Positions 1 to 26,523 of a stretch of 34,680 bases of DNA are shown in pieces. Below the pieces are notes generated by a model. It saw nothing but the letters and a program-made list of their open reading frames with translations, had not been told where the DNA came from and did no database searches. Numbering within the stretch: position 1 is the stretch's first letter; every line of letters starts with the position of its first letter. Source of the stretch: Opitutales bacterium (GTDB lineage Bacteria; Verrucomicrobiota; Verrucomicrobiia; Opitutales; Seribacteraceae); NCBI GenBank assembly GCA_029251885.1, contig JAQXCL010000024.1:1-34680 (forward strand). Reading direction: 5' to 3'. Made by a program: the position numbers and the translations under genes.

Positions 1-2117
1 ATATCATCTAAATAAGTACGTTCTGTCATAGGGACCTTGCCTTGAAAATCAAGAAACTCACTTAAATTGTTATCCAACTGAGCAACTGCAGTTGCGGAAA
101 GTAAACCTGATCTGAACTGTGCCCAGTAACTGCTTCTCTCTTTCTCCAAAAGTCGCCTACGAGCCTCAGCCAATGTATCCATACTTGCTAGTTCATCTGC
201 AGTCAGCGGATAACTTACGGGATCGGGCAAATAGTTCCTGACCAAGCCCCAATTTGCACCGCTTAAAAAGCGATCATCTTTAAGGAGATCCATTTCTTGC
301 TCACAAACATTTGATATGTTGCCGGTGGCGTTGGAAAACATTAATTTTTTAACCGCGGGCAATTCTGTCAGTCCAAGTTTATTTACCAATACTTTGATAG
401 TCGTGGCATTGACCAAAAGAGTGAGCAAAACGATACCAGAAATAAGGAACAGAAATTGATCGCGTACACGCGAAGAAATTCCAACCAAAGAAGCACTTGC
501 GATCGCTCCATTTCCTTCGCCAAAAATAAGAACCTTTTTGGCTCCGCTTGATAAATCTTCCCGAATTTGGGAAACAATCTTAGAATCTTTCTTTCCGAGA
601 ATTTCCTCTGATAATTCGCTGGATTGAGAAATTCCCATAATACGACCATTGGATACCTTAGCCTTGGCAAAGGAATTTGCCGCCATTCCGTATAAATTCA
701 AGTTTGGGTTGGTTCCTGCATACGAACGAGCCTCATCAGAATCGACCACGAAAACAGAAGTTGTTTTTGCAGAGTATCCACTCCCCCCCTCAGTTATTTG
801 AAATTCATACCTCAGGCTTTCTGAATAAACCACCAAGGCTAAGGCCAAGCCAATTGCACCACGCAAAGCACCCCACCAAACCACAATTGCATCTTTTCCG
901 GGAAGTCCATAACCCGCTTTTTTCATGAACGGATAAAACATACCCATATTGATAGCCCGAACGACATGAATGATGACATAAATTAAGAATAAAATGAGGA
1001 AATCCATTCCCGTAGGCTCTGCTTTTTGGGCAATTACCACCCCCACAACGATGAAGATGATTACATTTGCCGCAAAGGCAGTGAATTCCCAAAACTCGTG
1101 CATGAAGTGCTCGACCTCTGGACTAATTCTTGTCCTTCCCACTCCAGCCATAACGATTCCCAATGCAACTAAACCAAGAACTCCTGAGACATGGAAAAAA
1201 TGTTCACAAACAAAAAAGACTGCATAAGAAGCTACTAAAACTACGGTTATTTCAATCAACGGATCGTTAAAAACTTTCCTCACCCATAAAATGGCAATTA
1301 GTCCCAGAAATACTCCAACTAATCCACCCGCTGCTCCAATTTTACCAAAGCCAATTGCAGCACTTCCAATGAAACTGCCTGCACCGAGGAATTGCTCAGC
1401 GCCCGTAACCACTCCGATCAAAAGGACAAAGGCTACGATTGCGGTTCCGTCATTAAGCAAAGATTCACCCTCGATTAAAGTTCCTAATTTCTTACTAGCA
1501 CCCAAGTCCTTAAGCAGAGCAACCACTGCGACAGGATCCGTGGCACTAACCACGGCCCCGAACAACATAGAGGCCAGGACCAGAAAGGCCCCGCTATCCA
1601 CATTCCAGTCTGCTAAGACTCCTCCTGGCCCCCCAAAGGCCGAAACCAGTCCCATAAAAGCAAGTCCGGTCATGACAGTAGCCGTCACAATACCTGGTCC
1701 TGCCATATAAAAGGCATTGACGAAAGATTTCTTAAAGGTGTGAACATCCAAAGCAAAACCAGCCTCAAATATAAGAATGGGCAGGAAAACATACAAAATG
1801 AGATGTCCATCCAAATTTCCGCCCCAAGATATAGCTCCACTAAGGGTATCCACGAACTTGGCCCATAGACCTGAGGCTTGCTCAATACCATGATCATCTC
1901 CATGAGAACTTCCACCATGCGGTCCGTAGGCCCGATTCAATCCACCCATGGCCAAACCAATGAGTAATAAAAGAACCGTAAAAGGAAGAGGAATTCGTTG
2001 CAGGAAATGCCTAGTGGCTGCACCGATAATCAACGCAACAATTAAGAAAAATAATCCGTATAGATAACCGATGTCACCAGAGGAAGCCAAAACATGTGTA
2101 AAACTTAATGAAGTCAT
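1..2117 (-). CDS. CPA1-family Na+/H+ antiporter (partial, C-terminus beyond window)
   Basis: An open minus-strand frame runs from ATG at 2117 to the left edge without a stop (705 codons plus 2 bases). It encodes a polytopic inner-membrane cation/proton exchanger. The CPA1 signature is clear: SATDPVAVVALLKDLG near residue 194, then GESLLNDGTAIV near residue 215, whose Asn-Asp pair is the ion-binding hallmark of electroneutral exchangers. WWGALRGAIGLALALVVY follows near residue 410. A His-rich acidic loop (GPHGGSSHGDDHG) lies near residues 60-74. Unusually, about 115 residues of soluble-looking sequence separate that helix (ending near 430) from the next one (DQFLFLISGIVLL, near 550). The visible C-terminal part continues into a hydrophilic tail, as in long NhaP/SOS1/sperm-NHE-like exchangers. 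There is no clear Shine-Dalgarno. The gene lies just downstream of the FecR-like gene on the same strand. The family call is secure; the transported ion (Na+ or K+) is not. Confidence 0.9.
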   Translation of the reverse strand, partial: MTSLSFTHVLASSGDIGYLYGLFFLIVALIIGAATRHFLQRIPLPFTVLLLLIGLAMGGLNRAYGPHGGSSHGDDHGIEQASGLWAKFVDTLSGAISWGGNLDGHLILYVFLPILIFEAGFALDVHTFKKSFVNAFYMAGPGIVTATVMTGLAFMGLVSAFGGPGGVLADWNVDSGAFLVLASMLFGAVVSATDPVAVVALLKDLGASKKLGTLIEGESLLNDGTAIVAFVLLIGVVTGAEQFLGAGSFIGSAAIGFGKIGAAGGLVGVFLGLIAILWVRKVFNDPLIEITVVLVASYAVFFVCEHFFHVSGVLGLVALGIVMAGVGRTRISPEVEHFMHEFWEFTAFAANVIIFIVVGVVIAQKAEPTGMDFLILFLIYVIIHVVRAINMGMFYPFMKKAGYGLPGKDAIVVWWGALRGAIGLALALVVYSESLRYEFQITEGGSGYSAKTTSVFVVDSDEARSYAGTNPNLNLYGMAANSFAKAKVSNGRIMGISQSSELSEEILGKKDSKIVSQIREDLSSGAKKVLIFGEGNGAIASASLVGISSRVRDQFLFLISGIVLLTLLVNATTIKVLVNKLGLTELPAVKKLMFSNATGNISNVCEQEMDLLKDDRFLSGANWGLVRNYLPDPVSYPLTADELASMDTLAEARRRLLEKERSSYWAQFRSGLLSATAVAQLDNNLSEFLDFQGKVPMTERTYLDD

Positions 2118-2138
2118 AATTATGAGTAGTTTAGAAAA

Positions 2139-3104
2139 TTAATTACCTCGTAGCAGACGACTAGGAAAAGGCCTGGTTGTCGGATCAGTAACAGAGGGTT
2201 TTTCTGAAGTTATCTTGTCTGGTGTTGGAATGGTTGTGGAGGGAAATTCATCAGAGTTAACGGACAATCTCTTTGGCTTTCGACCAAGAAGTTCTTGCAA
2301 GGGAAGAGAGCCTGTTACTTCATAACCCCTTTTCTTGTATGAAAGATTCGAAGTGTCGTTTGAAAACTGGGCTGAGGTGTTTGATGGTTGAAACTCGTTG
2401 ATAATTTCAAAAACTTCAGGTTTTTTTGCACCACCAACAGTCGCATCAAAGGTTTTACCAATGAAAAGCTTTTGAGATTCAGAAACACTTTTCAGCGAAT
2501 TTAAAAAACTCTGACTATTTGAAAAACCAGATATAAGAAATGATGTCTCAAATAAATTATGGAGATCCACAACTAATTTATCGCTAAATACATTTTCTGA
2601 TAAATTGGTAAAAACAAGTTCTCCAGGAAGAATGGTAGCTGAACTTTTTCCATTGAGGCTCAAAATAATCTTTCCAAGTACACCAACACATTTAAAACCA
2701 CCGTTGGGCTCCAAATTAATCAAGCAAGAACCTGCACCGGACAAACGAATCGAGGCCTCAGGGCCTTTAAGATTTAGAGCATTTGTAATTTTACGAGATC
2801 GTACAAATATTGAGCCACTAAATAATTCAATGCTTTGCTCTTCACAAACAAAAGCAGTGGATGAACCGAACCTAAACTGATAACCAGCAGCAAGTGTCTC
2901 AATTCCACTTTTGGGCCGAACAGACAATTTTGTACTAAATGGCAAAAAAGTGGCTTGATTGACTGCCAACGACTTTCCGGATTTATCGGATAAAAAAACT
3001 CCATCTCCCAGACTTGAAACAAATAGGTGAGAAACCTTACCCAAGAGGGAACTCCCTCCAATCAGAAAAATCGAACAAGCAATAAGGCAAAACTTCATTC
3101 TCAT
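2139..3104 (-). CDS. Secreted FecR-like domain protein
   Basis: This is a 321-residue protein with a Sec signal peptide (MRMKFCLIACSIFLIGGSS, cleavage near residue 22). Residues about 25-175 have the alternating strand pattern of FecR periplasmic domains: a start near SSLGDGVFLS, then LSVRPKSGIETLAAG, SIELFSGSIFVRSR and SIRLSGAGSCLINLEPNGG. The C-terminal third is low-complexity, Pro/Ser/Thr-rich and probably disordered. There is no transmembrane anchor, and no sigma factor or TonB receptor is nearby, so a classical FecIR role is unlikely. It lies 71 bases after ftsZ in the same direction, so it may be co-transcribed with the division genes. The FecR assignment rests on pattern only. An outer-surface or periplasmic structural role is equally possible. 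Confidence 0.6.
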   Translation of the reverse strand: MRMKFCLIACSIFLIGGSSLLGKVSHLFVSSLGDGVFLSDKSGKSLAVNQATFLPFSTKLSVRPKSGIETLAAGYQFRFGSSTAFVCEEQSIELFSGSIFVRSRKITNALNLKGPEASIRLSGAGSCLINLEPNGGFKCVGVLGKIILSLNGKSSATILPGELVFTNLSENVFSDKLVVDLHNLFETSFLISGFSNSQSFLNSLKSVSESQKLFIGKTFDATVGGAKKPEVFEIINEFQPSNTSAQFSNDTSNLSYKKRGYEVTGSLPLQELLGRKPKRLSVNSDEFPSTTIPTPDKITSEKPSVTDPTTRPFPSRLLRGN

Positions 3105-3175
3105 TGTTCAAAGATAATTTATCAGGCAGGTCAAACAATCAAAATTTCAAATCCTTCGTAATCCTTAGCAATTCT

Positions 3176-4474
3176 TTAGATTACGATCTTTACCCCTCGC
3201 CGTAAATACGATGGTACATCCAAGTCCTCACCCTCATACATATTCCTGCTAGGAAGATCGTCAAATATGCCTCTTTGGTTCTCTGCTTCCATAAAGAAAA
3301 AAGTATTTTGCTCTTTATTATCAATGTTCCTTCCTCTCTTTTTCCGAGTCGCCATGGAGGAAGTTTTTTCCGGGCTAGTATTTGTAATTTCTAATTTAGA
3401 TCGATGAGACTGTTTAGCATTCTTACCTAGTTCCAATACTTGTTGAGCGACCGGAGCAACATCGGCAGTGGGAACCAAGGGATCTAACGAGGTAACTCCC
3501 AAAATGGTAATTTTGACCTCCTCTCCAAGATTCTCATCAACATGTGCCCCAAAAACAACATCTTCTCCGGCCTTAAATGAATCCCTGATCTCTTTGGATA
3601 CGGATTGTAAACCAGACATACTTAATGAGGTTCCACCCTGTATAAAAATAAGCAAAATATCTGCAGCCTTTGATACATCAGGCATATGTAACATCGGACA
3701 AACGAGTAAATCTCTTAAGGCTTCGCGTAAACCTTCTTTCCCACTCCCCTTTCCATAGCCAAAAAGCGTCCGTCCACCTCGGCCCGAAAAAACTTTACGC
3801 AGGTAGGAAAAATCAACATCAATCATCCCCTTTTTAAATACTATGTTGCAGATGGCAGCTATACCCCTGCTGACATTTCGCCCTGCTTCAGCAAAACACT
3901 CCAAGGCGGTGGAGTCTTCACCTCCCATTTGTAAAAGTGAATCATTAGGTAAAGGAATCACAGCATTTGCATGCTTTCGTAGTTCAGACAAGCACTCCTC
4001 TGCCTGGGCGTGTCGCGTTTTTTCCCAACTAAATGGCAAAGGAGTAAAAGCGAAAACTAGCGCCCCATGTTCACGGGCTAACCTCGCAACAACCGGCGCA
4101 GCCCCTCCTCCTACTCCACCCCCCAAACCAGCAAGAAGGAAAACTAAATCGACACCCTCCAACTCTTTCCGAATTTTATCTTTTTCTTCTTCGGCCAATC
4201 TTTTACCTAAGTTAACATCTCCTCCTGTGCCCATTCCACGTGTATGCCTTCTGCCAAAAGTGAGTTTTTGAGAGGCGAGAGAATCGGCCACTGCCTTAAT
4301 ATCAACATCGATGATCAAATTATCTACGAAGTCAAAATTATCGAAGCGCAAACCATCGACTAAGGATATACCTGCCCCACCAACGCCAATGACCTTTGCC
4401 CTAATTCCAAAGGAATTATTGTTTAAGTTGGAATTGTCATTTGTTTCAAAGAATGTTTCTTGATTCGTATTCAT
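3176..4474 (-). CDS. ftsZ: Cell division protein FtsZ, divergent
   Basis: This 432-residue tubulin-like GTPase forms the cytoplasmic Z-ring. Recognisable landmarks are the T1 loop GVGGAG (30-35), GMGTGGDVNLGKRLAEEE (80-97), the signature loop GLGGGVGGGAAP (116-127), the T7 loop MIDVDFSYLRK (217-227), a variable linker (about 331-400) and a conserved C-terminal peptide EDLDVPSYLRR (416-426) that should bind FtsA. Several key residues differ from canonical FtsZ. The signature GGGTGTG reads GGGVGGG. The T2 loop NTD reads DVD. The T7 motif NxDFAD reads DVDFSY, which keeps the Asp equivalent to E. coli D209 but replaces D212 with Tyr and N207 with Asp. GTP turnover may therefore be slow or altered. 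The gene follows ftsA, as in most dcw clusters. Its identity is certain from context and the C-terminal peptide. Confidence 0.96.
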   Translation of the reverse strand: MNTNQETFFETNDNSNLNNNSFGIRAKVIGVGGAGISLVDGLRFDNFDFVDNLIIDVDIKAVADSLASQKLTFGRRHTRGMGTGGDVNLGKRLAEEEKDKIRKELEGVDLVFLLAGLGGGVGGGAAPVVARLAREHGALVFAFTPLPFSWEKTRHAQAEECLSELRKHANAVIPLPNDSLLQMGGEDSTALECFAEAGRNVSRGIAAICNIVFKKGMIDVDFSYLRKVFSGRGGRTLFGYGKGSGKEGLREALRDLLVCPMLHMPDVSKAADILLIFIQGGTSLSMSGLQSVSKEIRDSFKAGEDVVFGAHVDENLGEEVKITILGVTSLDPLVPTADVAPVAQQVLELGKNAKQSHRSKLEITNTSPEKTSSMATRKKRGRNIDNKEQNTFFFMEAENQRGIFDDLPSRNMYEGEDLDVPSYLRRGVKIVI

Positions 4475-4531
4475 ATCATATAGGCTGGGGTGTTTTTACG
4501 TTACCACACTGAGTGGACTTTCAAATGGTTT

Positions 4532-5737
4532 TTAGATACCGATGAGCCCACCGAGCTTTTTAATAAATCCAGAACTTACTGCTTTGTGCTGCTCTCCTGG
4601 TAAGCCGTGATCCTCCAAACCATAATGTAGGAGTCCTAGAACGGTGGAGTTTTCAGGTTGGGCAAGTTCATTGCCCAACCCGGATGGAAAATTGGCTTTA
4701 GTCACAGGCACGCCGAGAACCTTAGAGGCCAATTGCTCAATACCAGGCAATCGCGAAGCTCCACCCGTTAGCAAAACGCCAGCACCCAACTCAGAAGTAT
4801 CGAGCAAGTCGCCTAGCTCTTTACTGATAATTTCAAACAGTTCAACGACACGAACATGTATAATATCGGTCATTGTTTTACGTGGCACTTTACGGTCACC
4901 AATCGTTTTGTTTCCAATTATCCATAGTTGTTGGTCTGCATCAGAAGGATCCGACTGGGCCTTTCCATATTCCAGTTTAAGTTCCTCTGCGTAAGGCTCT
5001 AATACCCTCAGTCCCATTGACAAATCCCCTGTAAGATGATCGCCCCCCACCGGTATCACTCCCGTGTATGCAACATTTCCATTACGATAAAGGGCAAGAT
5101 CCGTAACACCTGCTCCCAAGTCAATAACTAGAACCCCCGCCCTCCTCAGGTCAGGTCCTGCAACCATAGTCGAAGATGCAATCGAGGACAAAATAAGATC
5201 AGCCACTTCCAATCCATAATTGTGTGCAAGATCGAGGTTCATTCTAATTGCTGATTCATCTCCCTCTATCGACCAATAAATAAGTTCTACTTTTTTCCCG
5301 ATCATACCGACGGGGTCTTCCACGGAACGGCCATCTAACTGAATAGGCATTCTAACATGATGGACATAAGATCTCCCTGATGCAGGTTGTTTGCGCTTTG
5401 CTTCATTAGCAGCGGTTTGTAGGTCATCAACTGACACCCTACCATCAGGCGAAGCAACATTTGCACTTCCCCTTAAAAAAGAACCTTTTATATGTGCACC
5501 AGTTTGGGCCAGGTATACAGAGTCAACCGTTGTTCCTGACATTTTCTCCGCCTCTTCCAAAGCCGCATGAACGCTTGAAGCGACTTTTCTAAAATCTACA
5601 ATCTCACCCTTGCGCATACCTTCGTTTTTCCGAACAGATTTGCCCACAATATTAAGAGATTTCCCCTCGGTCACTTCCCCGACTAATGCTTTAGCACAGG
5701 AAGTTCCAATTTCCACGGCACCAATTATTTTACTCAT
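4532..5737 (-). CDS. ftsA: Cell division protein FtsA
   Basis: This 401-residue actin-like ATPase tethers FtsZ filaments to the inner membrane. The phosphate-1 motif is GAVEIGTSCAKALVGE (6-21), the phosphate-2 motif is VIDLGAGVTDLALY (about 203-216), and the adenosine motif is GVLLTGGASRLPGIE (about 320). The SHS2/1C subdomain lies between the first two motifs (SVYLAQTGAHIKG and following). The last residues, SSGFIKKLGGLIGI, form a short amphipathic helix typical of the FtsA membrane-targeting sequence. Length is close to the family norm. The Glu in the phosphate-1 motif is also found in E. coli FtsA and is not an anomaly. It lies between ftsQ and ftsZ, as in the standard ftsQAZ order, with 34 bases to ftsQ and 57 to ftsZ. 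No strong ribosome binding site is visible before the ATG. Confidence 0.97.
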   Translation of the reverse strand: MSKIIGAVEIGTSCAKALVGEVTEGKSLNIVGKSVRKNEGMRKGEIVDFRKVASSVHAALEEAEKMSGTTVDSVYLAQTGAHIKGSFLRGSANVASPDGRVSVDDLQTAANEAKRKQPASGRSYVHHVRMPIQLDGRSVEDPVGMIGKKVELIYWSIEGDESAIRMNLDLAHNYGLEVADLILSSIASSTMVAGPDLRRAGVLVIDLGAGVTDLALYRNGNVAYTGVIPVGGDHLTGDLSMGLRVLEPYAEELKLEYGKAQSDPSDADQQLWIIGNKTIGDRKVPRKTMTDIIHVRVVELFEIISKELGDLLDTSELGAGVLLTGGASRLPGIEQLASKVLGVPVTKANFPSGLGNELAQPENSTVLGLLHYGLEDHGLPGEQHKAVSSGFIKKLGGLIGI

Positions 5738-5771
5738 AGTATGTATAGGTTAAAATTAAATGCGGACACCT

Positions 5772-6032
5772 TTAGATTTTGGCAAAAACAGAACGGCCAT
5801 GTGAAAGATCAATCGAATGAATAGAAGAAGCCTGAGAAAAATTTGGTTCATCCAGCAAATAGCGCAGCCTTTTTAATTGGTTCGCATAATTGGATGGGTT
5901 AAAGCGGATACTATTTATTCGATTGGATTTGATGGTAATGCTAGCACCGGGATCGTTATCATAAGGGCGATTATAGGAAACGACAGACCAGTCTCGATAA
6001 AGTTCTGGATAGTCTCTCCTCGCCAATTCCAA
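5772..6032 (-). pseudogene. ftsQ: FtsQ C-terminal part, separated from the N-terminal part by an in-frame stop
   Basis: This frame continues exactly in phase from the FtsQ frame upstream (6683 minus 6032 is 651, divisible by 3). Translation across the TAA at 6063-6065 continues with LKGIPVFAPLLELARRDYPE and ends in SIDLSHGRSVFAKI, the expected end of an FtsQ periplasmic beta domain. The longest separately startable ORF begins at a TTG (6032) and gives 86 residues, with no signal peptide or membrane segment. Translated alone it would stay in the cytoplasm and could not replace the missing domain. Read together with the upstream part, the product is about 303 residues, a normal FtsQ size. The frame has no other lesion, so the stop is recent, recoded or a sequence error. 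Confidence 0.75.
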
Positions 6033-6062
6033 AAGTGGTGCAAAAACTGGAATACCTTTTAG

Positions 6063-6065
6063 TTA
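6063..6065 (-). other. In-frame TAA inside ftsQ
   Basis: The coding-strand context is GGT TTT AAA TAA CTA AAA GGT. One substitution (for example CAA to TAA) would explain it. The stop is followed by C, a context generally considered leakier than average. A CUA triplet after a stop is known as a readthrough-promoting context in eukaryotic and viral systems, not established here. TAA is the normal terminal stop of other genes in the window (for example ftsZ and waaA), so genome-wide reassignment of TAA is excluded. Confidence 0.9.
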
Positions 6066-6683
6066 TTTAAAACCTTTTCCATCAGGGGTCTTTTCGATAA
6101 GGGAAGCTGGAACATGTAAAGAGGGAATTAACCTTAGCATTCCCTTGCTGTAACCCTCCCCCCGGTAAAGAAAACCGTCTGATGAGACAAGCCAATCGAG
6201 GTAGCCCTTTTTTCTGTCCCTGAGCCTCAAAACTAACATGGGAACCCGTTCTTTTATTTCGACAACTAAGGTAGATGGAAAACTTCTACTAATTCGTGCA
6301 GATGAAATTTGTTCTTCCTTCAACAAATTTTGCTGAAGTTTTTCTAAATCCACTTCAACCAATGAACTCCCCCTTAAGGGACCCAACCAGTTAAGAAACC
6401 ATTCATGACTCAGAGGACCAGAAGAACGAAAAACTATTTGGTTTATCGGCAAAGAGGGACCGGTATAATCCTTTTTACCAACATCGGTCCGGGCGTCCTT
6501 ATCTATTTGTAGATACAAAAACGAGAATAAGAAGATTATAATAGCTGCACCAAAGATTAACCGAGCAGCCACGGCCAATCTTTTTCTAACCACAACTCGA
6601 GAACTTGACTTTCGTGAAAACCTAGGCTTCAGGTTCCTCCAAGTTGCAGGCATAACGAGATCATTCTTTTTGGCTTTACTCAT
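6063..6683 (-). CDS. ftsQ: Cell division protein FtsQ, N-terminal part ending at an in-frame TAA
   Basis: This 206-residue product has a basic cytoplasmic N-terminus, one transmembrane segment (about 36-58, AARLIFGAAIIIFLFSFLYL) and a POTRA-like domain (about 78-150; strand-helix pattern ending RSFPSTLVVEIKERVPMLVL). It is followed by the start of the FtsQ beta domain (YLDWLVSSDGFLYR). FtsQ is the bitopic divisome scaffold that links FtsB/FtsL and FtsW/FtsI. The protein stops prematurely after TPDGKGFK, while the same frame stays open for another 97 codons. The lost part normally contains the FtsB-binding strands. The gene starts 4 bases after ddl, is followed by ftsA, and sits in the conserved ddl-ftsQ-ftsA order. 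Identification is from position plus topology, since FtsQ sequences are poorly conserved. Confidence 0.85.
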   Translation of the reverse strand: MSKAKKNDLVMPATWRNLKPRFSRKSSSRVVVRKRLAVAARLIFGAAIIIFLFSFLYLQIDKDARTDVGKKDYTGPSLPINQIVFRSSGPLSHEWFLNWLGPLRGSSLVEVDLEKLQQNLLKEEQISSARISRSFPSTLVVEIKERVPMLVLRLRDRKKGYLDWLVSSDGFLYRGEGYSKGMLRLIPSLHVPASLIEKTPDGKGFK

Positions 6684-7653: not shown

Positions 7654-9858
7654 TCAGGATAAGTATTGATTCCAAGACTCGCCCAGCAAGTTGACTTCGG
7701 GTTCCAATATAACTCCCTGGCTTTCCTTCACTCTCTTTTTTACGCGCTGGATTAATTCAATGACATGGTCAGAAGTCGCACCCCCATGATTAACGATGAA
7801 ATTCCCATGAATTTCTGATACTCCAGCACCGCCTACTTTCTCTCCCTTTAATCCTGCCTGATCAATGAGCCAGCCCGCTGGATGGTTTTCCGGATTACGA
7901 AAAACACAACCAGAACTTGCCTGCTGAGGTTGGCTTTTTCTGCGTTTTTTAGATAATTGATCGATAATATTGCGAATTTCCAAGTGTTGGGCTTTTCCCT
8001 TAGCTCGAAGTTTCGCACGCAAGGCAATGCCTTCATAGGCTTCCCGGCAGTACCTGTAACCAACTTCGAGCTCATCGCCTGGAATTTGCCTTACTTGACC
8101 ATCCGGCATCAGAAACTTTACCCACTCAACCATATCAAAAATTTCCCACCCCATCGCTCCTGCATTCATGCGAAGGGCACCACCCAAGGTTCCTGGGATA
8201 CCTTCGAGAAATTCAAATCCCTTTAAATTTTTAAGGCAGGCGAATTTGCATATTTCCTTCAACTTTGCACCGGCACCAACAATAAGGGTATCTTCACTTC
8301 TTAAATCAATGGTCTTCCAATAGTCTCCGCGCAACCTAATCACCAAGCCCCCAAATCCCTGGTCTGGGACAATTAGATTGGAACCTCGACCAAGCATAGA
8401 CCTGGGTAATTCAAAAAAATCACATGCCTCCAACAGGGTAGTTAAATCCTCTGTATTAGCCGGTTCGCAATACCACTTTGCACCTCCACCAACACCCATG
8501 GTTGTCATGGTCCCGAGAGGAGCATTTTCAACTAATTTGGTTTGCTCAGAGATCCGCCCTTTTAAAAAATAACCAAATGCGTCCTGCTTTACTGCTCCAG
8601 CGGTTTGCCAGGCAGAAAAAGCGTGAGCCCACTTCCACAAATCTCCGGCACCGACAAAGAGTACTTGATCCTTCGCCAATTCTGATGGTTCTCCAAGTGC
8701 AAGCCTAAGATCCCGAAAATGGGTGTATACCTTTGCCGTTTCTCGAAGCCTGGGTGGAAGGTAACCATTTAAGGACTCAACAGTTCCAGACCGATCATAG
8801 GGTTCAAAGGCTGAATAAGTTTGTAACAAATGTAGTTCATCGGCATGAGACAATTCATCTGCAAAAGATGGTGCCAATGCTTTGGTACGGGAATATCGAT
8901 GAGGTTGAAAAACTACTTTCAATTTATGATCGGGTAAAAGCTGCCCCCTCATCCTTAATAAACTGGCAATTTCTGTAGGGTGATGAGCGTAGTCCTCAAT
9001 GATTATCCGCTGAGTGGATTCAAAGAGTGTGCTTTGACGCCTGTCCATACCCGGGAATTCTGAGAATTGTAGGTCGGTGATATCAACTTCCAGTGCTTTA
9101 GCAGTCTGACGAACGGCTCGTTCATTAGCATCAAGAAAATTTGCGGCTTCTTCCGCATGTTTGAAAGGATAAAGCTGTTTACCCTTTAATTCACAGGTCA
9201 TTTCATCCAGCGGATTTGTATCAGCAAAAACAACCGTCTTTTTTGTCCTTAAAAGTAAACTTTTTAGAGTTTCAGCGAAGGAACCTTTTTCCTTGTAAAG
9301 GTCTACATGATCCCAGTCACAATTTAAAGCAACCGTCATCCAGGGTTTAAAGCCATCAATCGAACCATCACTTTCATCCACTTCCATCACTACCCATTTT
9401 GAGTTTGAATAAAACCCAGATGGCAGATGAAAATCTTTAAACTGTGCCCCCACAAGGTAAGATGTCTCAAAACCACAATTTTTAAGTGCCCAGACTAACC
9501 TTCCCGTCACACTGGATTTCCCATGACTTCCAACCACCGCAATGATTCGTTTTCTAGCAAATAATTTGGCAAGGAAATCACCCCTTCGATAAAGAGGAAT
9601 ACCCATCTTCTGGAACTTGTTAAGACGAGAATCATTTTTTGAGACTGCAGACGAATGAACAATACAATCGGGGACTTTGATAGGGTTTAGCTCATCGATA
9701 ATCTTAACGCCAAAACTTAATAGGTGTGAACGAATCGGCTCGGAAAAACGATCATCAAAGGCTTCCACTCGTACGCCTGCACCCCGAAGATAAAGGGCTA
9801 ATGGAGCCATGCCCATTCCACCAGCCCCAAGCAAAAGTACTTTTTTAGGTCTTCTCAC
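7654..9858 (-). CDS. murC-murB: Fused MurC-MurB: UDP-MurNAc:L-Ala ligase plus UDP-GlcNAc-enolpyruvate reductase
   Basis: This 734-residue bifunctional protein has MurC at residues 1 to about 415: Rossmann start VLLLGAGGMGMAPLA (7-21), P-loop VVGSHGKSSVTG near 110, EVDESDGS near 160, NCDWDHVD near 185, and the C-terminal domain motif IEDYAHHPTEI near 290. From about 430 it is MurB: FAD-binding TTMGVGGGAKW near 450, MLGRGSNLIVPDQGFGG near 495, GIPGTLGGALRMNAGA near 560, GYRYCRE and a type II-like C-terminus. In the reductase active site the usual GS(V/F)F reads SSGCVFRNP, so the catalytic Ser is Cys651. The fusion combines two consecutive cytoplasmic steps. A MurB/MurC fusion has been reported from Verrucomicrobium spinosum. 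It overlaps murG by 4 bases (ATGA). Confidence 0.96.
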   Translation of the reverse strand: MRRPKKVLLLGAGGMGMAPLALYLRGAGVRVEAFDDRFSEPIRSHLLSFGVKIIDELNPIKVPDCIVHSSAVSKNDSRLNKFQKMGIPLYRRGDFLAKLFARKRIIAVVGSHGKSSVTGRLVWALKNCGFETSYLVGAQFKDFHLPSGFYSNSKWVVMEVDESDGSIDGFKPWMTVALNCDWDHVDLYKEKGSFAETLKSLLLRTKKTVVFADTNPLDEMTCELKGKQLYPFKHAEEAANFLDANERAVRQTAKALEVDITDLQFSEFPGMDRRQSTLFESTQRIIIEDYAHHPTEIASLLRMRGQLLPDHKLKVVFQPHRYSRTKALAPSFADELSHADELHLLQTYSAFEPYDRSGTVESLNGYLPPRLRETAKVYTHFRDLRLALGEPSELAKDQVLFVGAGDLWKWAHAFSAWQTAGAVKQDAFGYFLKGRISEQTKLVENAPLGTMTTMGVGGGAKWYCEPANTEDLTTLLEACDFFELPRSMLGRGSNLIVPDQGFGGLVIRLRGDYWKTIDLRSEDTLIVGAGAKLKEICKFACLKNLKGFEFLEGIPGTLGGALRMNAGAMGWEIFDMVEWVKFLMPDGQVRQIPGDELEVGYRYCREAYEGIALRAKLRAKGKAQHLEIRNIIDQLSKKRRKSQPQQASSGCVFRNPENHPAGWLIDQAGLKGEKVGGAGVSEIHGNFIVNHGGATSDHVIELIQRVKKRVKESQGVILEPEVNLLGESWNQYLS

Positions 9859-12160: not shown

Positions 12161-13228
12161 TCAAGGAGCATCGATAATTGGTCGATCCTCATTGGATGAG
12201 TCGTTGAAGAAGTCTTGCAAGCTTGCCCCCTCATCATTCGGAGCTACTTTCGCTTCATTGGTAATATCTGTTACAGGAGAATTCGACTGTGAATCAACCG
12301 AACCCTGAGAAACGATTAGCGGCTGCCCCGAGCGAATCAAGCTTGGATTGGTAAGCCCATTCCACTCCATAATTTGACTAACTGATACTCCATAAATCGA
12401 GGCAATACGGGAAAGGTTATCGCCCTTTTTTACAATATGAGTACTCGCACCAAGCGGGATCACTTTGGGGGTAGCAACTTCTTTAGTTTCGGTAGCAACG
12501 TAGGAAGATGCATTTGGTATTAATAACTTCTGACCGGGGCGGATAATGGAAGACATGGACATATTGTTCGCTTTTAGTAATTCCGACAGACGTAGACCAT
12601 GTTTACGGGCAATTTGAGAAAGAGTGTCCCCTTTTTCTACAGCGTAAGAGTTTCCAGTTAAGCCAGATTCAAAATTACTCGGTTCTTGTGATGGTTGAGG
12701 CAAAGACAATCCAGGAGTAATTACACCGGGAATCATAATTTCCTGACCAATCGATAAGCGTCCGTTTTGATTAAGATTGGGATTAGCGTCCAATAATTGA
12801 GTCAAAGGCACGCCATTTTTTCTGGCAATCCCCCAAAGGGTGTCTCCCCGTTCAACTTTATAAATTGCAAGATCTGACGGGCGTAAATCAATAGGAACAG
12901 GCTTTTGTTCGCGAGGAACTATAATCGATTGCGTCGAAGGTACACCCGGTTCTTCTGGTACGATTAATTCTCCAGGAACGGGGCGTTGAGGTGCCGCAAA
13001 TTCATTAGCGGAAGAGGTACTTTTAACCTCTTTTGGCTGCTGGATAGCGGAATCTTCGATTCCTTGATTAAAGGTTTGCTCAGGGGCATCCTCGACTGCG
13101 GCTGGAACATCCGCACCAAGGTCTTTTGCCTTTCCACCTGTTGTCTGACAACTAGGTTGGAACATAACCAGAAGAATAACTCCGACGTGAAGCGAGAGTA
13201 CGATACCGAATACTTTTGATAGTTTCAT
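12161..13228 (-). CDS. Triple-LysM peptidoglycan-binding protein within the dcw cluster
   Basis: This 355-residue protein has an N-terminal hydrophobic segment (7-23) followed by PSCQTT, which suggests export and possibly lipidation at Cys27, although the lipobox is atypical. Three LysM modules are evident: residues 123-167 (YKVERGDTLWGIARKNGV), 195-238 (YAVEKGDTLSQIARKHGL) and 264-307 (HIVKKGDNLSRIASIYGV), each ending in a GQ..LIP-type strand. They are joined by Pro/Ser-rich linkers. LysM binds the glycan backbone, so the protein should sit on peptidoglycan in the periplasm. No amidase or peptidase domain is visible, so it is a binder rather than a hydrolase. Its place between murD and ftsW suggests a septal or cell-wall scaffold function, which is an inference. 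Confidence 0.9.
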   Translation of the reverse strand: MKLSKVFGIVLSLHVGVILLVMFQPSCQTTGGKAKDLGADVPAAVEDAPEQTFNQGIEDSAIQQPKEVKSTSSANEFAAPQRPVPGELIVPEEPGVPSTQSIIVPREQKPVPIDLRPSDLAIYKVERGDTLWGIARKNGVPLTQLLDANPNLNQNGRLSIGQEIMIPGVITPGLSLPQPSQEPSNFESGLTGNSYAVEKGDTLSQIARKHGLRLSELLKANNMSMSSIIRPGQKLLIPNASSYVATETKEVATPKVIPLGASTHIVKKGDNLSRIASIYGVSVSQIMEWNGLTNPSLIRSGQPLIVSQGSVDSQSNSPVTDITNEAKVAPNDEGASLQDFFNDSSNEDRPIIDAP

Positions 13229-23273: not shown

Positions 23274-25664
23274 TTATTCCTCGAGGCTAGATGATATCAA
23301 CTCACGGAGAATTTGGTCTCTTGAAAGCATACCTCTAGAAAGTTCCAAATTCCTTTGCATGGCGACTGCTTCATCTGATTCCGTAACCTTCCCTCTTAGC
23401 GAATAGATGTCACGAAGCTTGCCAAAAATGACTTCATTCTCATTCCTTTCAATCTCTGCCCACTTACCATCAACGGGCAATGCATCAGCCCCATCAAGAA
23501 AAGAAGTTACTGTTGATCGCTCTTGGTTCAATTCTTCAATATCAGAGTTAAGGCTTTTAATTTGACGATCAAGGCTGCTCTTCTTCGCCGATTTCTCTTC
23601 CTTTATTTCTGCCTTTTCCTGTTCAAGCTTTTGAATCTTGGAGCGGAAATTTCTCTGCTTTGCATCAAAGTATGCCTGAGCGGTACCTGAATTCTTCTTA
23701 CTGAACTGATGAACTTTCAAATCTTTATTATCTGCCTTATCGGACTCCATTAGACGCTTCTTGATACTTTCAATTTTCTTGGCAAAAGCATCAGTTTTTA
23801 AGTGCCTTAAATATTCCCGGCAGAGAGTTGAATAAGGTAAGTTCTTAAATACAGCAGGACGACGATCCGTTTTTCTGTCCAAAAGAAAAACGACCTGACC
23901 GCTTCGGGATTTTCGTACAGAACGCGTAAAAAAGCGTACTTCATCTAATGTTGAAACTTCCTCCAAGGGTTCTCGATTAGTTCTTTGCTCACTTGCTCTT
24001 CTCTCCAACCCAAGAACCATAGACTGCACTCCCATTTCAGAATCAGAAAACGAAACCTTCCTTTGTTTTGCCTCACTGGAGCTCAAAAATCGCTCAAGTT
24101 CATCGGAATTTCTCAAAGCGGGGAAGTCAGGAAACTTTCGTTTTATTTCGTCGGCAAAGGTGTTCAGGTTATCGAGGAAATCAAGCGCTGCCTCCTGTGC
24201 TAATCGACCGGCCTCCCGTTTGGCATCATTGGTATCTTGCTCAGCTACTTTTTGACGAACCTGTTCAGCCACATCCTCAAATTTAACATCTTGAGGAACA
24301 CTATTATTTCCATCTTTTTTGACCGAAGGATCCTCATCAGAGAGAAAATCCAGACGATTTCGTTCAAAGTAGGAACGAAGCCTTGCTTTATCAGCAGGCG
24401 GTGGAGGTGTTAGAAAACTTTGATTTTCAAAGACCATCGCAGTGGCAAAGGTACGAGGTTCTTCAGCAAAAACATCCAAATCCCGATTTCCCTCAAAATA
24501 GGCTAGCAATTTATCCGAAAGCAATTCTGTAAACTCTATGGAATTTGCATCACTCTTAATTAAAGGCGAAGATTTACCAAGCTTATCATTTTCGAGTTCT
24601 AAAGAGATCATATTTCCCTTTTTTTCAATGGCCAGAATCCCCAGATCCTTCTGATTAAAAGCACTAATTAAAGCTAGAGCACTCTCCTTAATAGTCTTTC
24701 CAAGCACAACCTTAACGATTGAACCGTTAGTATCGACTGCAGAATTACTGAATACAAAGTTGTACTTTTTCGTTCCGTAAGAAACGGATAAGGAATCACC
24801 AGTACTGGGGAGCTTGGAAAGTTTAACTTGCCCCAAAGATAGGGTTTTAAGTGGCAGAGCGGTTGCTGAAAGAACAGCAACATCCCCATCCCATACAAAC
24901 GCGTTTTCGTGACTGAGGGCATTAATTTCTCCCGCCAATGCAAATCCACGACTTTGGTAAATCCGATCAATTTGCTTATCTCTAAAAGCGGCATAAAGAA
25001 CCGACTCCAGTTCATTCGCAGACATTCCAAATCTTGCCCCAACCATCGAAAAAGCTGAGGACCGATTTGCTTCCGACTGCAAAGAAGGATCCAATCGGCT
25101 GAGAAAGTTAAGGAATTCCGCATTAACCGCGGGATGATTCACCTGAGGGGACAAGAAGTCCCACTCATCAGCCTGAAAACCTAAGGCAACACGCGACTCA
25201 ATGGCAGCATCCAAAAAATCGCTATCATAAGATCCAGAACGGGCAATTTCGCGAGCTTGAAAATCGGGAGCAAAATTTGGCCATGCCTGCATATATTCAA
25301 ACATCCTTTGCATGGCATCACGATCAACCTCTTCAGGGTTCGCCCGAAAAGCCGCTTGGATTTGTTGCTGCAGACCCTCCATGTAAGCAGTACCCGCCCT
25401 GGAAATATCTTCGCGCCCTGGGTTGGACATTACCCCCATGGCACCTGCCGCACGCGTGGTCACGCTAAGAAAACGTCTCTGATCAGGATCGTTCCAATTA
25501 TATCCGAAAAACTCTTTCTTTTCTCGCCCGCCGTCAGACATTAGATCAAAAACCGAGGATCCTTGGGATAGGTATAAAACAAAAGATACCACTACTAATA
25601 AGAGCAGAAGTATAAATACAAATTTTCCTTTTTTGGAAATAAAGTGCTGAAGGGCTGTAATCAT
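23274..25664 (-). CDS. PpiD/SurA-like membrane-anchored periplasmic protein lacking an evident parvulin domain
   Basis: This 796-residue protein has an N-terminal membrane anchor (about 14-32, KFVFILLLLLVVVSFVLYL) and a helical SurA_N/PpiD-like region (about 85-250). At 283-385 is a beta-rich insert (PSTGDSLSVSYGTKKYNFVF, then VVLGKTIKESALALISAFN). It then returns to a PpiD-like helical segment (LRSYFERNRLDFLSDED, VKFEDVAEQVRQKVAEQ) and has a charged coiled coil (about 665-725). The position where PpiD carries its prolyl-isomerase domain shows no parvulin motif. A role as a periplasmic chaperone or holdase at the translocon is inferred. It ends the trpA-led gene group and has a possible weak promoter of its own (TTGACG at 25722-25727). 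The family call is tentative. Confidence 0.6.
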   Translation of the reverse strand: MITALQHFISKKGKFVFILLLLLVVVSFVLYLSQGSSVFDLMSDGGREKKEFFGYNWNDPDQRRFLSVTTRAAGAMGVMSNPGREDISRAGTAYMEGLQQQIQAAFRANPEEVDRDAMQRMFEYMQAWPNFAPDFQAREIARSGSYDSDFLDAAIESRVALGFQADEWDFLSPQVNHPAVNAEFLNFLSRLDPSLQSEANRSSAFSMVGARFGMSANELESVLYAAFRDKQIDRIYQSRGFALAGEINALSHENAFVWDGDVAVLSATALPLKTLSLGQVKLSKLPSTGDSLSVSYGTKKYNFVFSNSAVDTNGSIVKVVLGKTIKESALALISAFNQKDLGILAIEKKGNMISLELENDKLGKSSPLIKSDANSIEFTELLSDKLLAYFEGNRDLDVFAEEPRTFATAMVFENQSFLTPPPPADKARLRSYFERNRLDFLSDEDPSVKKDGNNSVPQDVKFEDVAEQVRQKVAEQDTNDAKREAGRLAQEAALDFLDNLNTFADEIKRKFPDFPALRNSDELERFLSSSEAKQRKVSFSDSEMGVQSMVLGLERRASEQRTNREPLEEVSTLDEVRFFTRSVRKSRSGQVVFLLDRKTDRRPAVFKNLPYSTLCREYLRHLKTDAFAKKIESIKKRLMESDKADNKDLKVHQFSKKNSGTAQAYFDAKQRNFRSKIQKLEQEKAEIKEEKSAKKSSLDRQIKSLNSDIEELNQERSTVTSFLDGADALPVDGKWAEIERNENEVIFGKLRDIYSLRGKVTESDEAVAMQRNLELSRGMLSRDQILRELISSSLEE

Positions 25665-25755: not shown

Positions 25756-26523
25756 CTACTTGGCAACCAAGACCGGACGATCAGAAAAAATTAATGAACT
25801 CATCCAACTTTGCCTCTTCGATCCATCTTCCTTCACAAAGGGGCGCATAACCACCATCTTCTCTAGAACCAAAGCTTTGTCACCCTCTTCAGAGCAGCGC
25901 AAAAAATACTTGTAGCTTTCCTCAGGTATGTTTTCTTCCGCTTCCATAACAATCTTGGGTAACTTGATAGTCACAGTAACCCGGTCACTCACACGGTTCC
26001 ATTCCCCAGTCATCATCTGGGGAAGACCTGCACCTGCAACCCTGGCCCCACCCTGATCACCAAATGTAATCTCTATAGGGAAAGATGCCTTGCGCGACTT
26101 TCCAAGGTTTCGCATTAATAAAAGCGGAGATCCGTCGTCATTTCTTAAACCCTTTATTGACTGAAAGGCATAGCGAACACCCCGCTTAATTAAAAAGAAT
26201 TCTCCTGGTTTTTTGTCGTCATCTAAACGAATAATTCTTTCGCCATCCCCCACCTCCCATGTGCCCAGTCGGCTAACCGGTTTCATTTGCGGGTGGGCGA
26301 AACGAATTTCCGCAGACATCTTGCTTGGGGATTGTGATAAGAGCAGCTCGACCCGGCACTCGTTACCATCAGTGATTAAATTCCCCTCAAAAACTTCATA
26401 GACCCAGTCTTTAACCTCTCCCACATAGGAACCCTCGGGGTCGTCATACAGACAAGAAGAAAGCAAAAACAACAGCCCATACAGGAGGAAGTTTTTTACC
26501 CAGCTCATAATAAATTCAAACAT
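25756..26523 (-). CDS. Predicted lipoprotein, unknown function
   Basis: This 255-residue protein has a type II signal peptide and a good lipobox, LLFLLSSC, with Cys24 as the lipidation site. The mature part looks all-beta, with repeated GxW segments (GTWEVGDGERIIRLDDD near 87 and GEWNRVSDRVTVTIKLP near 173). There are no catalytic motifs. It lies 34 bases after the membrane-bound pseudokinase gene on the same strand, so it is almost certainly co-transcribed with it. The extracytoplasmic part of that pseudokinase shows a similar GEWEKVDGSFRLNF segment, so the two may share a fold or partner. I do not recognise the family. Confidence 0.75.
   Translation of the reverse strand: MFEFIMSWVKNFLLYGLLFLLSSCLYDDPEGSYVGEVKDWVYEVFEGNLITDGNECRVELLLSQSPSKMSAEIRFAHPQMKPVSRLGTWEVGDGERIIRLDDDKKPGEFFLIKRGVRYAFQSIKGLRNDDGSPLLLMRNLGKSRKASFPIEITFGDQGGARVAGAGLPQMMTGEWNRVSDRVTVTIKLPKIVMEAEENIPEESYKYFLRCSEEGDKALVLEKMVVMRPFVKEDGSKRQSWMSSLIFSDRPVLVAK

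What the first reader, a model, noticed from the sequence alone, without database searches (positions are those of the whole stretch)
3176..4474. FtsZ lacking canonical GTPase residues
Seen: the signature GGGTGTG is GGGVGGG (116-127 region), the T2 NTD is DVD, the T1 Asn is Ser, and the T7 NxDFAD is DVDFSY, so the residue equivalent to E. coli D212 is Tyr224. The C-terminal FtsA-binding peptide is intact. Known: the T7 Asn and Asp residues activate GTP hydrolysis in the adjacent subunit, and the signature threonines contact phosphate. Inference: this FtsZ may hydrolyse GTP slowly, use another residue, or act mostly as a scaffold, perhaps alongside a second tubulin homologue elsewhere.
Basis: partly seen in the sequence, partly recalled or inferred. 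Interest (0 to 1): 0.72.

Follow-up and report, generated by a model that had tools for sequence, protein, structure and literature searches.

The report
Cell-division FtsZ with one catalytic aspartate
The main cell-division filament protein of this uncultured bacterium lacks several residues that textbook FtsZ uses to burn GTP, and most sampled relatives across its phylum have trimmed the same active site to a single acidic residue, which makes them a natural test of how much GTP burning cell division needs.

Summary
The gene is on the minus strand, 4474..3176 (432 aa), at the end of a long dcw cluster, and is the only FtsZ/tubulin found in a 94%-complete draft genome. The named substitutions are there: T1 N->S, T2 NTD->DVD, GGGTGTG->GGGVGGG, T7 NxDFAD->DVDFSY (Tyr224). 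It is not a lone oddity. Among 212 sampled genomes of the phylum (one FtsZ each), 28 keep the full N-x-D-x-x-D T7 motif, and in the window's order 0 of 65 do; outside the phylum 16 of 17 records do. The erosion is patterned: 203 of 212 keep an acidic residue at E. coli position 209 or 212, and 156 keep exactly one. The window protein keeps the 209 aspartate (Asp221), the residue that swings onto the catalytic water in S. aureus FtsZ, plus Asp58, Glu151 and Arg154, under strong purifying selection. I read it as a genuine, GTP-binding, slowly hydrolysing FtsZ with a reduced one-aspartate active site, not a dead scaffold and not half of a two-tubulin system. Fast verrucomicrobial ftsZ evolution was already in print; the residue-level rule was not found in my searches. 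No activity has been measured.

The parts
3176..4474 (-). ftsZ, 432 aa, sole FtsZ/tubulin homologue found in the genome
   Evidence: PF00091 8.4e-34 and PF12327 3.8e-11; TIGR00065 224.5 bits, below the curated cut-off 295.2; one match in own genome; AlphaFold2 model matches S. aureus FtsZ, TM 0.92 by target length
4364..4366 (-). Ser37, at E. coli Asn24 (T1)
   Evidence: S in 27 of 29 family members
4295..4309 (-). T2/H2: D56 V57 D58 I59 K60 (E. coli N43 T44 D45 A46 Q47); Asp58 kept
   Evidence: D at 43 and D at 45 in 29 of 29 family members; K or R at 47 in 25 of 29
4103..4123 (-). T4 signature GGGVGGG (Val121 at T108, Gly123 at T110)
   Evidence: position 108 in the family: T17 I5 V4 M3
4013..4024 (-). 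Glu151-Lys-Thr-Arg154 (E. coli E138 and R142 kept, one residue deleted between)
   Evidence: both 29 of 29 in the family
3875..3895 (-). H7 start FAEAGRN; Gly198 at a position that is Asp or Asn in 34 of 36 order-mates outside the family
   Evidence: G in 27 of 29 family members
3800..3829 (-). T7 loop GMIDVDFSYL: Asp219 (N207), Asp221 (D209, kept), Tyr224 (D212)
3263..3277 (-). Conserved QRGIF motif upstream of the C-terminal peptide
   Evidence: Q400 R401 G402 F404 invariant in 18 of 18 sequences of A1
3179..3235 (-). C-terminal conserved peptide EGEDLDVPSYLRRGVKIVI (FtsA-binding type)
   Evidence: E416 to P421 and Y423 to R425 invariant in 18 of 18
4532..5737 (-). ftsA, adjacent upstream gene, ordinary
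   Evidence: TIGR01174 275.4 bits, cut-off 175.85
6063..6683 (-). ftsQ-type POTRA protein
   Evidence: PF08478 2.5e-09

Best explanation
This is the organism's working division FtsZ. Shown: it is the only FtsZ found, sits in a long dcw cluster beside a normal ftsA, carries the FtsA-binding tail, and is under purifying selection; its predicted fold is FtsZ. Shown by comparison: its lineage has trimmed the T7 aspartate pair to one acidic residue. Inferred: GTP binds the N-terminal domain with Mg2+ near Asp56/Asp58, the next subunit's T7 loop docks, Asp221 (E. coli Asp209, S. aureus Asp210) swings onto the attacking water, and Arg154 supplies the positive charge that in S. aureus FtsZ is water-bridged to the residue now missing (Asp212). 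With Asp212 gone, and Asn207 and Gln47 changed to Asp and Lys, hydrolysis and filament turnover are slow (more like E. coli D212 mutants than wild type), while the ring still recruits the septal machinery through FtsA. Asp219-Lys60 might replace the K+ ion held between T7 and H2 in S. aureus FtsZ; that last point is speculation.
For: Single homologue in own genome; dcw synteny. Family of 29 genomes: D45, G71, E138, R142, N165, F182, D209 all 29/29 against 82 of 304 core columns invariant. Order: acid at 209 in 65/65 (62 D, 3 E), D45 63/65, E138 64/65, R142 63/65, but Asp at 212 in only 7/65. Phylum: 203/212 keep an acid at 209 or 212, 156/212 exactly one. A dependent two-trait model beats the independent one (likelihood ratio 24.1; 0 of 48 control pairs reach it; 23.0 on an IQ-TREE tree with 1 of 24 controls reaching it, 23.4 without families f29 and f45 with 0 of 26). 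dN/dS 0.04-0.06. S. aureus structure: D210 swings to position the catalytic water, D213 and R143 assist, N208 and Q48 hold K+ (PMC8936486, passages). E. coli D212G forms static rings with almost tenfold less GTPase (PMC7320174, passages) and is reported to function in division (PMC4383033, passages). V. spinosum FtsZ, identified here by two published primers and its 673-aa length, has T7 GIVRMGIADL (N207R, D209G, D212 kept) and is essential (PMC12283558, passages).
Against: No activity is measured. In S. aureus, N208L, D210N and D213N each suppress assembly (PMC8936486), so a D212Y protein might not polymerise without partners or compensating changes. Two other phylogenetic tests of the one-acid rule were not significant: independent pairs, median p 0.125, and a simulated count of proteins with neither acid, P 0.18. 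The Asp219-Lys60 idea has no covariation support: 4 independent pairs, no signal, and 4 family genomes have Asp at 47 with Asp at 207. The draft genome is 94% complete, so a second homologue could be missing; 8 of 37 family genomes gave no FtsZ match, one of them 91% complete. ftsA is under tighter constraint than ftsZ in the same genome pairs (dN/dS about 0.03).
Confidence: 0.6

Rival explanations
1. Non-hydrolysing scaffold: it binds GTP and polymerises but does not hydrolyse at a useful rate; turnover comes from other factors and septal synthesis drives constriction.
For: Loss of Asp212, Asn207, Thr108 and Gln47 together; N208L and D213N suppress assembly in S. aureus FtsZ; E. coli D212G gives static rings yet is reported to function in division.
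Against: Asp209 kept in 29/29 family members, an acid there in 65/65 order members, and Arg142 in 63/65, which drift would not be expected to spare; an acid at 209 or 212 is kept in 203/212 genomes.
Confidence: 0.2
2. Full-speed GTPase with a rewired active site: Asp219 (N207D), Asp56 (N43D) and Lys60 (Q47K) compensate completely, and rates match ordinary FtsZ.
For: N207D in 27/29, N43D in 29/29 and a basic residue 47 in 25/29 family members; Asp at 43 is common elsewhere in the phylum too (10 of 36 order-mates, 36 of 106 other class members, 30 of 41 of other classes).
Against: No phylum-wide covariation of acid-207 with basic-47; position 212 varies among H, Y and D within the family, as a relaxed rather than re-purposed site would.
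Confidence: 0.15
3. Altered nucleotide specificity or a nucleotide-poor structural filament, because residues near the guanine base changed (N24S, H7 Asp/Asn to Gly).
For: S at 24 and G at 186 in 27/29 family members; in S. aureus N25 hydrogen-bonds the nucleotide (PMC8936486, passages). That the H7 position contacts guanine is recalled.
Against: Asn165 and Phe182 are kept in 29/29; D45, G71, E138 and R142 are kept.
Confidence: 0.05

Closest known systems
Canonical bacterial FtsZ (E. coli, S. aureus, B. subtilis)
   Same: Predicted two-domain FtsZ fold (TM 0.92 to S. aureus FtsZ), PF00091 + PF12327, Asp45, Gly71, Glu138, Arg142, Asp209, FtsA-binding tail, dcw position
   Different: T7 N207D and D212Y, T2 N43D/T44V, Q47K, T108V, T110G, N24S, one-residue deletion after Glu138; TIGR00065 score 224.5 against cut-off 295.2
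Verrucomicrobium spinosum FtsZ (essential; PMC1845146, PMC12283558)
   Same: Same phylum; T7 acid pair reduced to one; dcw cluster; fused murC-murB in the genome
   Different: V. spinosum loses the 209 acid (Gly) and keeps 212 (Asp), with Arg at 207; it has a long C-terminal extension (673 aa)
E. coli FtsZ D212A/D212G laboratory mutants
   Same: Loss of the same T7 aspartate with Asp209 kept
   Different: A single engineered change in an otherwise canonical protein; here it is fixed, with co-occurring changes in neighbouring contacts
Ca. Thiosymbion oneisti FtsZ (natural low-GTPase FtsZ, PMC8953583)
   Same: A natural FtsZ reported with low GTPase activity (passages)
   Different: [quoted passage not shown] here the catalytic residues themselves changed
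BtubA/BtubB bacterial tubulins of Prosthecobacter
   Same: FtsZ/tubulin superfamily, same phylum
   Different: The window protein has the FtsZ C-terminal domain and is the sole homologue found; I read the extra weak matches in G164, G168 and G183 as such tubulins, next to a separate FtsZ

Membership tests
FtsZ (orthologue) | Tubulin/FtsZ GTPase domain plus FtsZ C-terminal domain | tested here: met
   PF00091 117.9 bits (cut-off 33) and PF12327 43.6 bits (cut-off 27)
FtsZ (orthologue) | Reaches NCBIfam TIGR00065 curated cut-off | tested here: not met
   224.5 against 295.2 bits; 29 of 141 sampled genomes of the class reach it, 13 of 14 control genomes do
FtsZ (orthologue) | dcw cluster position next to ftsA and C-terminal FtsA-binding peptide | tested here: met
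FtsZ (orthologue) | FtsZ fold | tested here: met
   predicted only: AlphaFold2 model, mean pLDDT 81.5; the 50 best PDB matches shown are FtsZ, TM 0.92 by target length for the first
Canonical FtsZ GTPase (T7 N-x-D-x-x-D) | Asn207, Asp209 and Asp212 all present | tested here: not met
   Asp, Asp, Tyr
Canonical FtsZ GTPase (T7 N-x-D-x-x-D) | GTP hydrolysis at FtsZ-like rate and treadmilling | not testable with these tools
   needs biochemistry
Two-tubulin division system | A second FtsZ/tubulin gene in the same genome | tested here: not met
   one match to PF00091 at E <= 0.001 and one to P0001 at E <= 10; genome 94% complete
One-acid T7 class (proposed here) | Exactly one acidic residue at E. 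coli positions 209/212 | tested here: met
   Asp221 kept, Tyr224; 156 of 212 genomes share this state

The most novel reading that the evidence does not exclude
Most of a phylum, including the genetically tractable V. spinosum in which FtsZ is essential, divides with Z-rings whose subunits have a one-acid active site and turn GTP over so slowly that rapid treadmilling is not part of their division mechanism.
Probability: 0.25. Interest if true: 0.82.

Novelty: new variant of a known kind. Interest (0 to 1): 0.6.

Why it matters
Whether division needs FtsZ GTP hydrolysis and treadmilling has been argued largely from point mutants in model species. Here the T7 acid state has changed at least 17 times at position 209 and 21 times at 212 on one tree (the count cannot tell gain from loss), in a gene that stays the sole FtsZ found in the window's genome and is essential by transposon sequencing in one species (PMC12283558). 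That turns the question into a comparative experiment with ready-made alleles and a host with targeted mutagenesis. It also suggests that annotation cut-offs such as TIGR00065 (passed by 29 of 141 genomes of the class) under-call FtsZ in this phylum.

Tried and rejected
Second FtsZ or tubulin in the genome: none found. A second, canonical FtsZ in relative G024 (L047) sits on a 6.8-kb contig and looks to me like contamination; left out of counts. SepF or MinC as partners: no match in own genome, so FtsA is the likely anchor. Asp207-Lys47 salt bridge replacing K+: attractive in the family, no support across the phylum. General degradation of the division genes: not favoured, since FtsA passes its cut-off in 139 of 141 genomes of the class while FtsZ passes in 29 of 141; caveat, the FtsA cut-off is passed by only 7 of the 14 control genomes and the FtsZ cut-off by 13, so the two are not equally strict. 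Alignment artefact for the T7 counts: not favoured; realigning with a profile built only from out-of-phylum FtsZs, of 202 alignable 80 keep the 209 acid only, 69 the 212 acid only, 47 both, 6 neither, and 28 are NDD; 10 of one family (f29) could not be aligned at T7, so their letters in the main count are unreliable. RNA families in the window: none at gathering threshold. Promoter/terminator scan of 1900-6200: no excess over shuffles.

Rows left out before the 212-genome counts: 10 class genomes of one genus (f24, g40) that were found but not fetched; 53 of 94 FtsZ-positive genomes of other classes not fetched; duplicate loci of one genome; tubulin-like L173, L176, L177, L178; L047; second copy L149. 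Partial sequences, for example L028, L045, L157 and L164, were kept. The 17 out-of-phylum controls leave out L047; one (L327) aligned poorly outside H7/T7, and L258 and L267 are near twins at the loops.

Full report
What is there. The ORF 4474..3176 lies on the minus strand (432 aa). It matches PF00091 and PF12327 above their cut-offs but scores 224.5 bits against TIGR00065, whose curated cut-off is 295.2. Upstream, in dcw order, are ftsA, ftsQ, ddl, a murC-murB fusion, murG, ftsW, a LysM protein, murD, mraY, two further Mur ligases, a penicillin-binding protein, a 114-aa ORF at the place of ftsL, and mraW; no mraZ was recognised. The own genome (2.18 Mb, 94% complete) has no other match to PF00091 at E <= 0.001 or to the protein itself at E <= 10. 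Four contigs of family members have the same lengths as contigs of named records titled uncultured Verrucomicrobia, Opitutales or Opitutia (CACMBV010000025.1, PBSV01000001.1, CAJQSI010000062.1, JABGWD010000434.1). From that I take the phylum to be Verrucomicrobiota and the order to be Opitutales-like; the matching by length is mine.

Residues, in E. coli numbering with window residue in brackets. Changed: N24S [37], N43D [56], T44V [57], Q47K [60], T108V [121], T110G [123], N186G [198], N207D [219], D212Y [224]. Kept: D45 [58], G71 [84], E138 [151], R142 [154], N165 [177], F182 [194], D209 [221]. In the S. aureus filament structures D210 (= D209) swings to place the catalytic water, D213 (= D212) and R143 (= R142) assist, N208 and Q48 hold a K+ ion, and N44/D46 order the Mg2+ waters; the authors call D46, Q48, R143, N208, D210 and D213 conserved across species (PMC8936486, passages).

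Is it one odd protein? No. I collected one FtsZ from each of 212 genomes of the phylum: 29 of the window's family, 36 of other families of the order, 106 of other orders of the class (V. spinosum included), 41 of other classes. All three T7 residues are canonical in 28 of 212 genomes, in 13 of 89 families at least once, and in 0 of 65 genomes of the order. As a contrast, 16 of 17 records from outside the phylum (Pseudomonadota, Actinomycetota, Bacillota, Bacteroidota, an archaeon, and three contigs titled Deltaproteobacteria, Syntrophaceae and Atribacteria) have all three; the exception, a plasmid copy in Ca. Thiodictyon, lacks only N207. E. coli has all three too, as do B. subtilis and M. tuberculosis in the alignments. 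That control is small, drawn mostly from a plasmid collection, and two of its rows are near twins.

The pattern. Acidic residue (D/E) at 209 only: 85; at 212 only: 71; both: 47; neither: 9. At family level by majority state 37, 28, 22 and 2, where 13 'neither' would be expected if the sites were independent; none of 20,000 permutations was as low (families as units, phylogeny ignored). On the FastTree phylogeny built without the T-loop columns, a model in which each site's loss rate depends on the other fits better than independence (likelihood ratio 24.1); by point estimate, loss of the 209 acid is about ten times slower when 212 is already gone, and loss of 212 about four times slower when 209 is gone. 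Since such tests can be inflated, I ran the same test on control column pairs: 0 of 48 reach 24.1, highest 16.7; on an IQ-TREE tree the ratio is 23.0 and 1 of 24 controls reaches it (23.6), and without families f29 and f45 it is 23.4 with 0 of 26. Against it: the independent-pairs sign test is not significant (median p 0.125), and simulated 'neither' counts under independence vary so widely that the observed 9 is not unusual (P 0.18). An independent realignment gives similar proportions. I call the one-acid rule well supported, not proven.

The window's branch. The order has mostly dropped 212 (Asp in 7 of 65) but keeps an acid at 209 in 65 of 65, D45 in 63, E138 in 64, R142 in 63. In the family all seven of D45, G71, E138, R142, N165, F182 and D209 are invariant in 29 of 29, while 82 of 304 core columns are. 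dN/dS against the two nearest genomes is 0.008/0.204 and 0.028/0.452 for ftsZ; ftsA is tighter (0.004/0.142 and 0.007/0.276). The gene is constrained, and the constraint includes a reduced active site. Eight of 37 family genomes gave no FtsZ match; they are drafts of 63-91% completeness.

ftsZ more than its neighbour. In 141 genomes of the class ftsA passes its cut-off in 139, ftsZ in 29, though the two cut-offs differ in strictness (7 and 13 of 14 controls). This agrees with a 2008 genome paper that reported accelerated ftsZ evolution in Methylacidiphilum and cited Prosthecobacter, with ftsA and ftsK unaffected, data not shown (PMC2474590, passages). V. spinosum was identified here by two primers printed in PMC1845146 (passages) and a 673-aa reading frame, the length given there. 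Its T7 is GIVRMGIADL: the 209 aspartate is gone, 212 is kept. Its ftsZ is essential by transposon sequencing and it divides by symmetric binary fission (PMC12283558, passages). So at least one FtsZ with a one-acid T7 is doing essential work.

Mechanism. E. coli D212G has an almost tenfold lower GTPase in one assay, with under 1% of wild type cited from earlier work, and forms static vortices (PMC7320174, passages). D212A hydrolyses much more slowly and, expressed with extra FtsA in cells that also have wild-type FtsZ, gives septa that complete division; the same paper cites reports that D212G functions in division (PMC4383033, passages). B. subtilis cells expressing the equivalent mutant beside wild type still constrict but with poorly condensed rings (PMC8079713, passages). 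Set beside these, the window protein is most simply a slow GTPase that uses Asp221. The AlphaFold2 model (mean pLDDT 81.5, 60 sequences) looks like a normal FtsZ, TM 0.92 to S. aureus FtsZ by target length; it is a monomer and says nothing about the composite active site.

What is known and what is not. In print: verrucomicrobial FtsZs are among the most divergent (PMC9871819, passages), ftsZ evolves fast (PMC2474590), V. spinosum FtsZ is essential (PMC12283558). I found no paper describing the T7 losses, the one-acid rule or a GTPase measurement of a Verrucomicrobiota FtsZ in searches. I saw only the top of each listing (5 to 20 papers of 5 to 122) and passages of eleven papers; in one of them, PMC5147048, none of my five terms occurred. 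The library lacks most subscription papers, and two likely ones (PMC32248, PMC2347405) were not held.

Noticed in passing
window 3263-3277 (-), and A1/A2: A second conserved block (Q389, F392, QRGxF at 400-404, N411) precedes the usual C-terminal FtsA-binding peptide; Q389, F392, Q400-G402, F404 and N411 are invariant in 18 of 18 sequences of the family and one order-mate. Possibly a second docking peptide.
   Followed up: partly
window 7654-9858 (-): murC-murB fusion, as reported for V. spinosum.
   Followed up: no
window 12161-13228 (-): A 355-aa LysM-repeat protein sits inside the dcw cluster between ftsW and murD.
   Followed up: no
L165-L172, L174, L175 (family f29): FtsZ of this family is so degenerate that T7 could not be aligned with a canonical profile (10 sequences), though ftsA in these genomes is over its cut-off.
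   Followed up: partly
L143 and L149 (G180): Two long FtsZ-like proteins in one genome of the class, on two different contigs.
   Followed up: no
G282:C24, G290:C32, G309:C1: Weak second FtsZ matches in open frames of 366-376 aa in three genomes of other classes, perhaps a second FtsZ-like family.
   Followed up: no
window 23274-25664 (-), 25756-26523 (-), 2139-3104 (-): Long ORFs without any Pfam match at E 0.001; the last lies just downstream of ftsZ.
   Followed up: no
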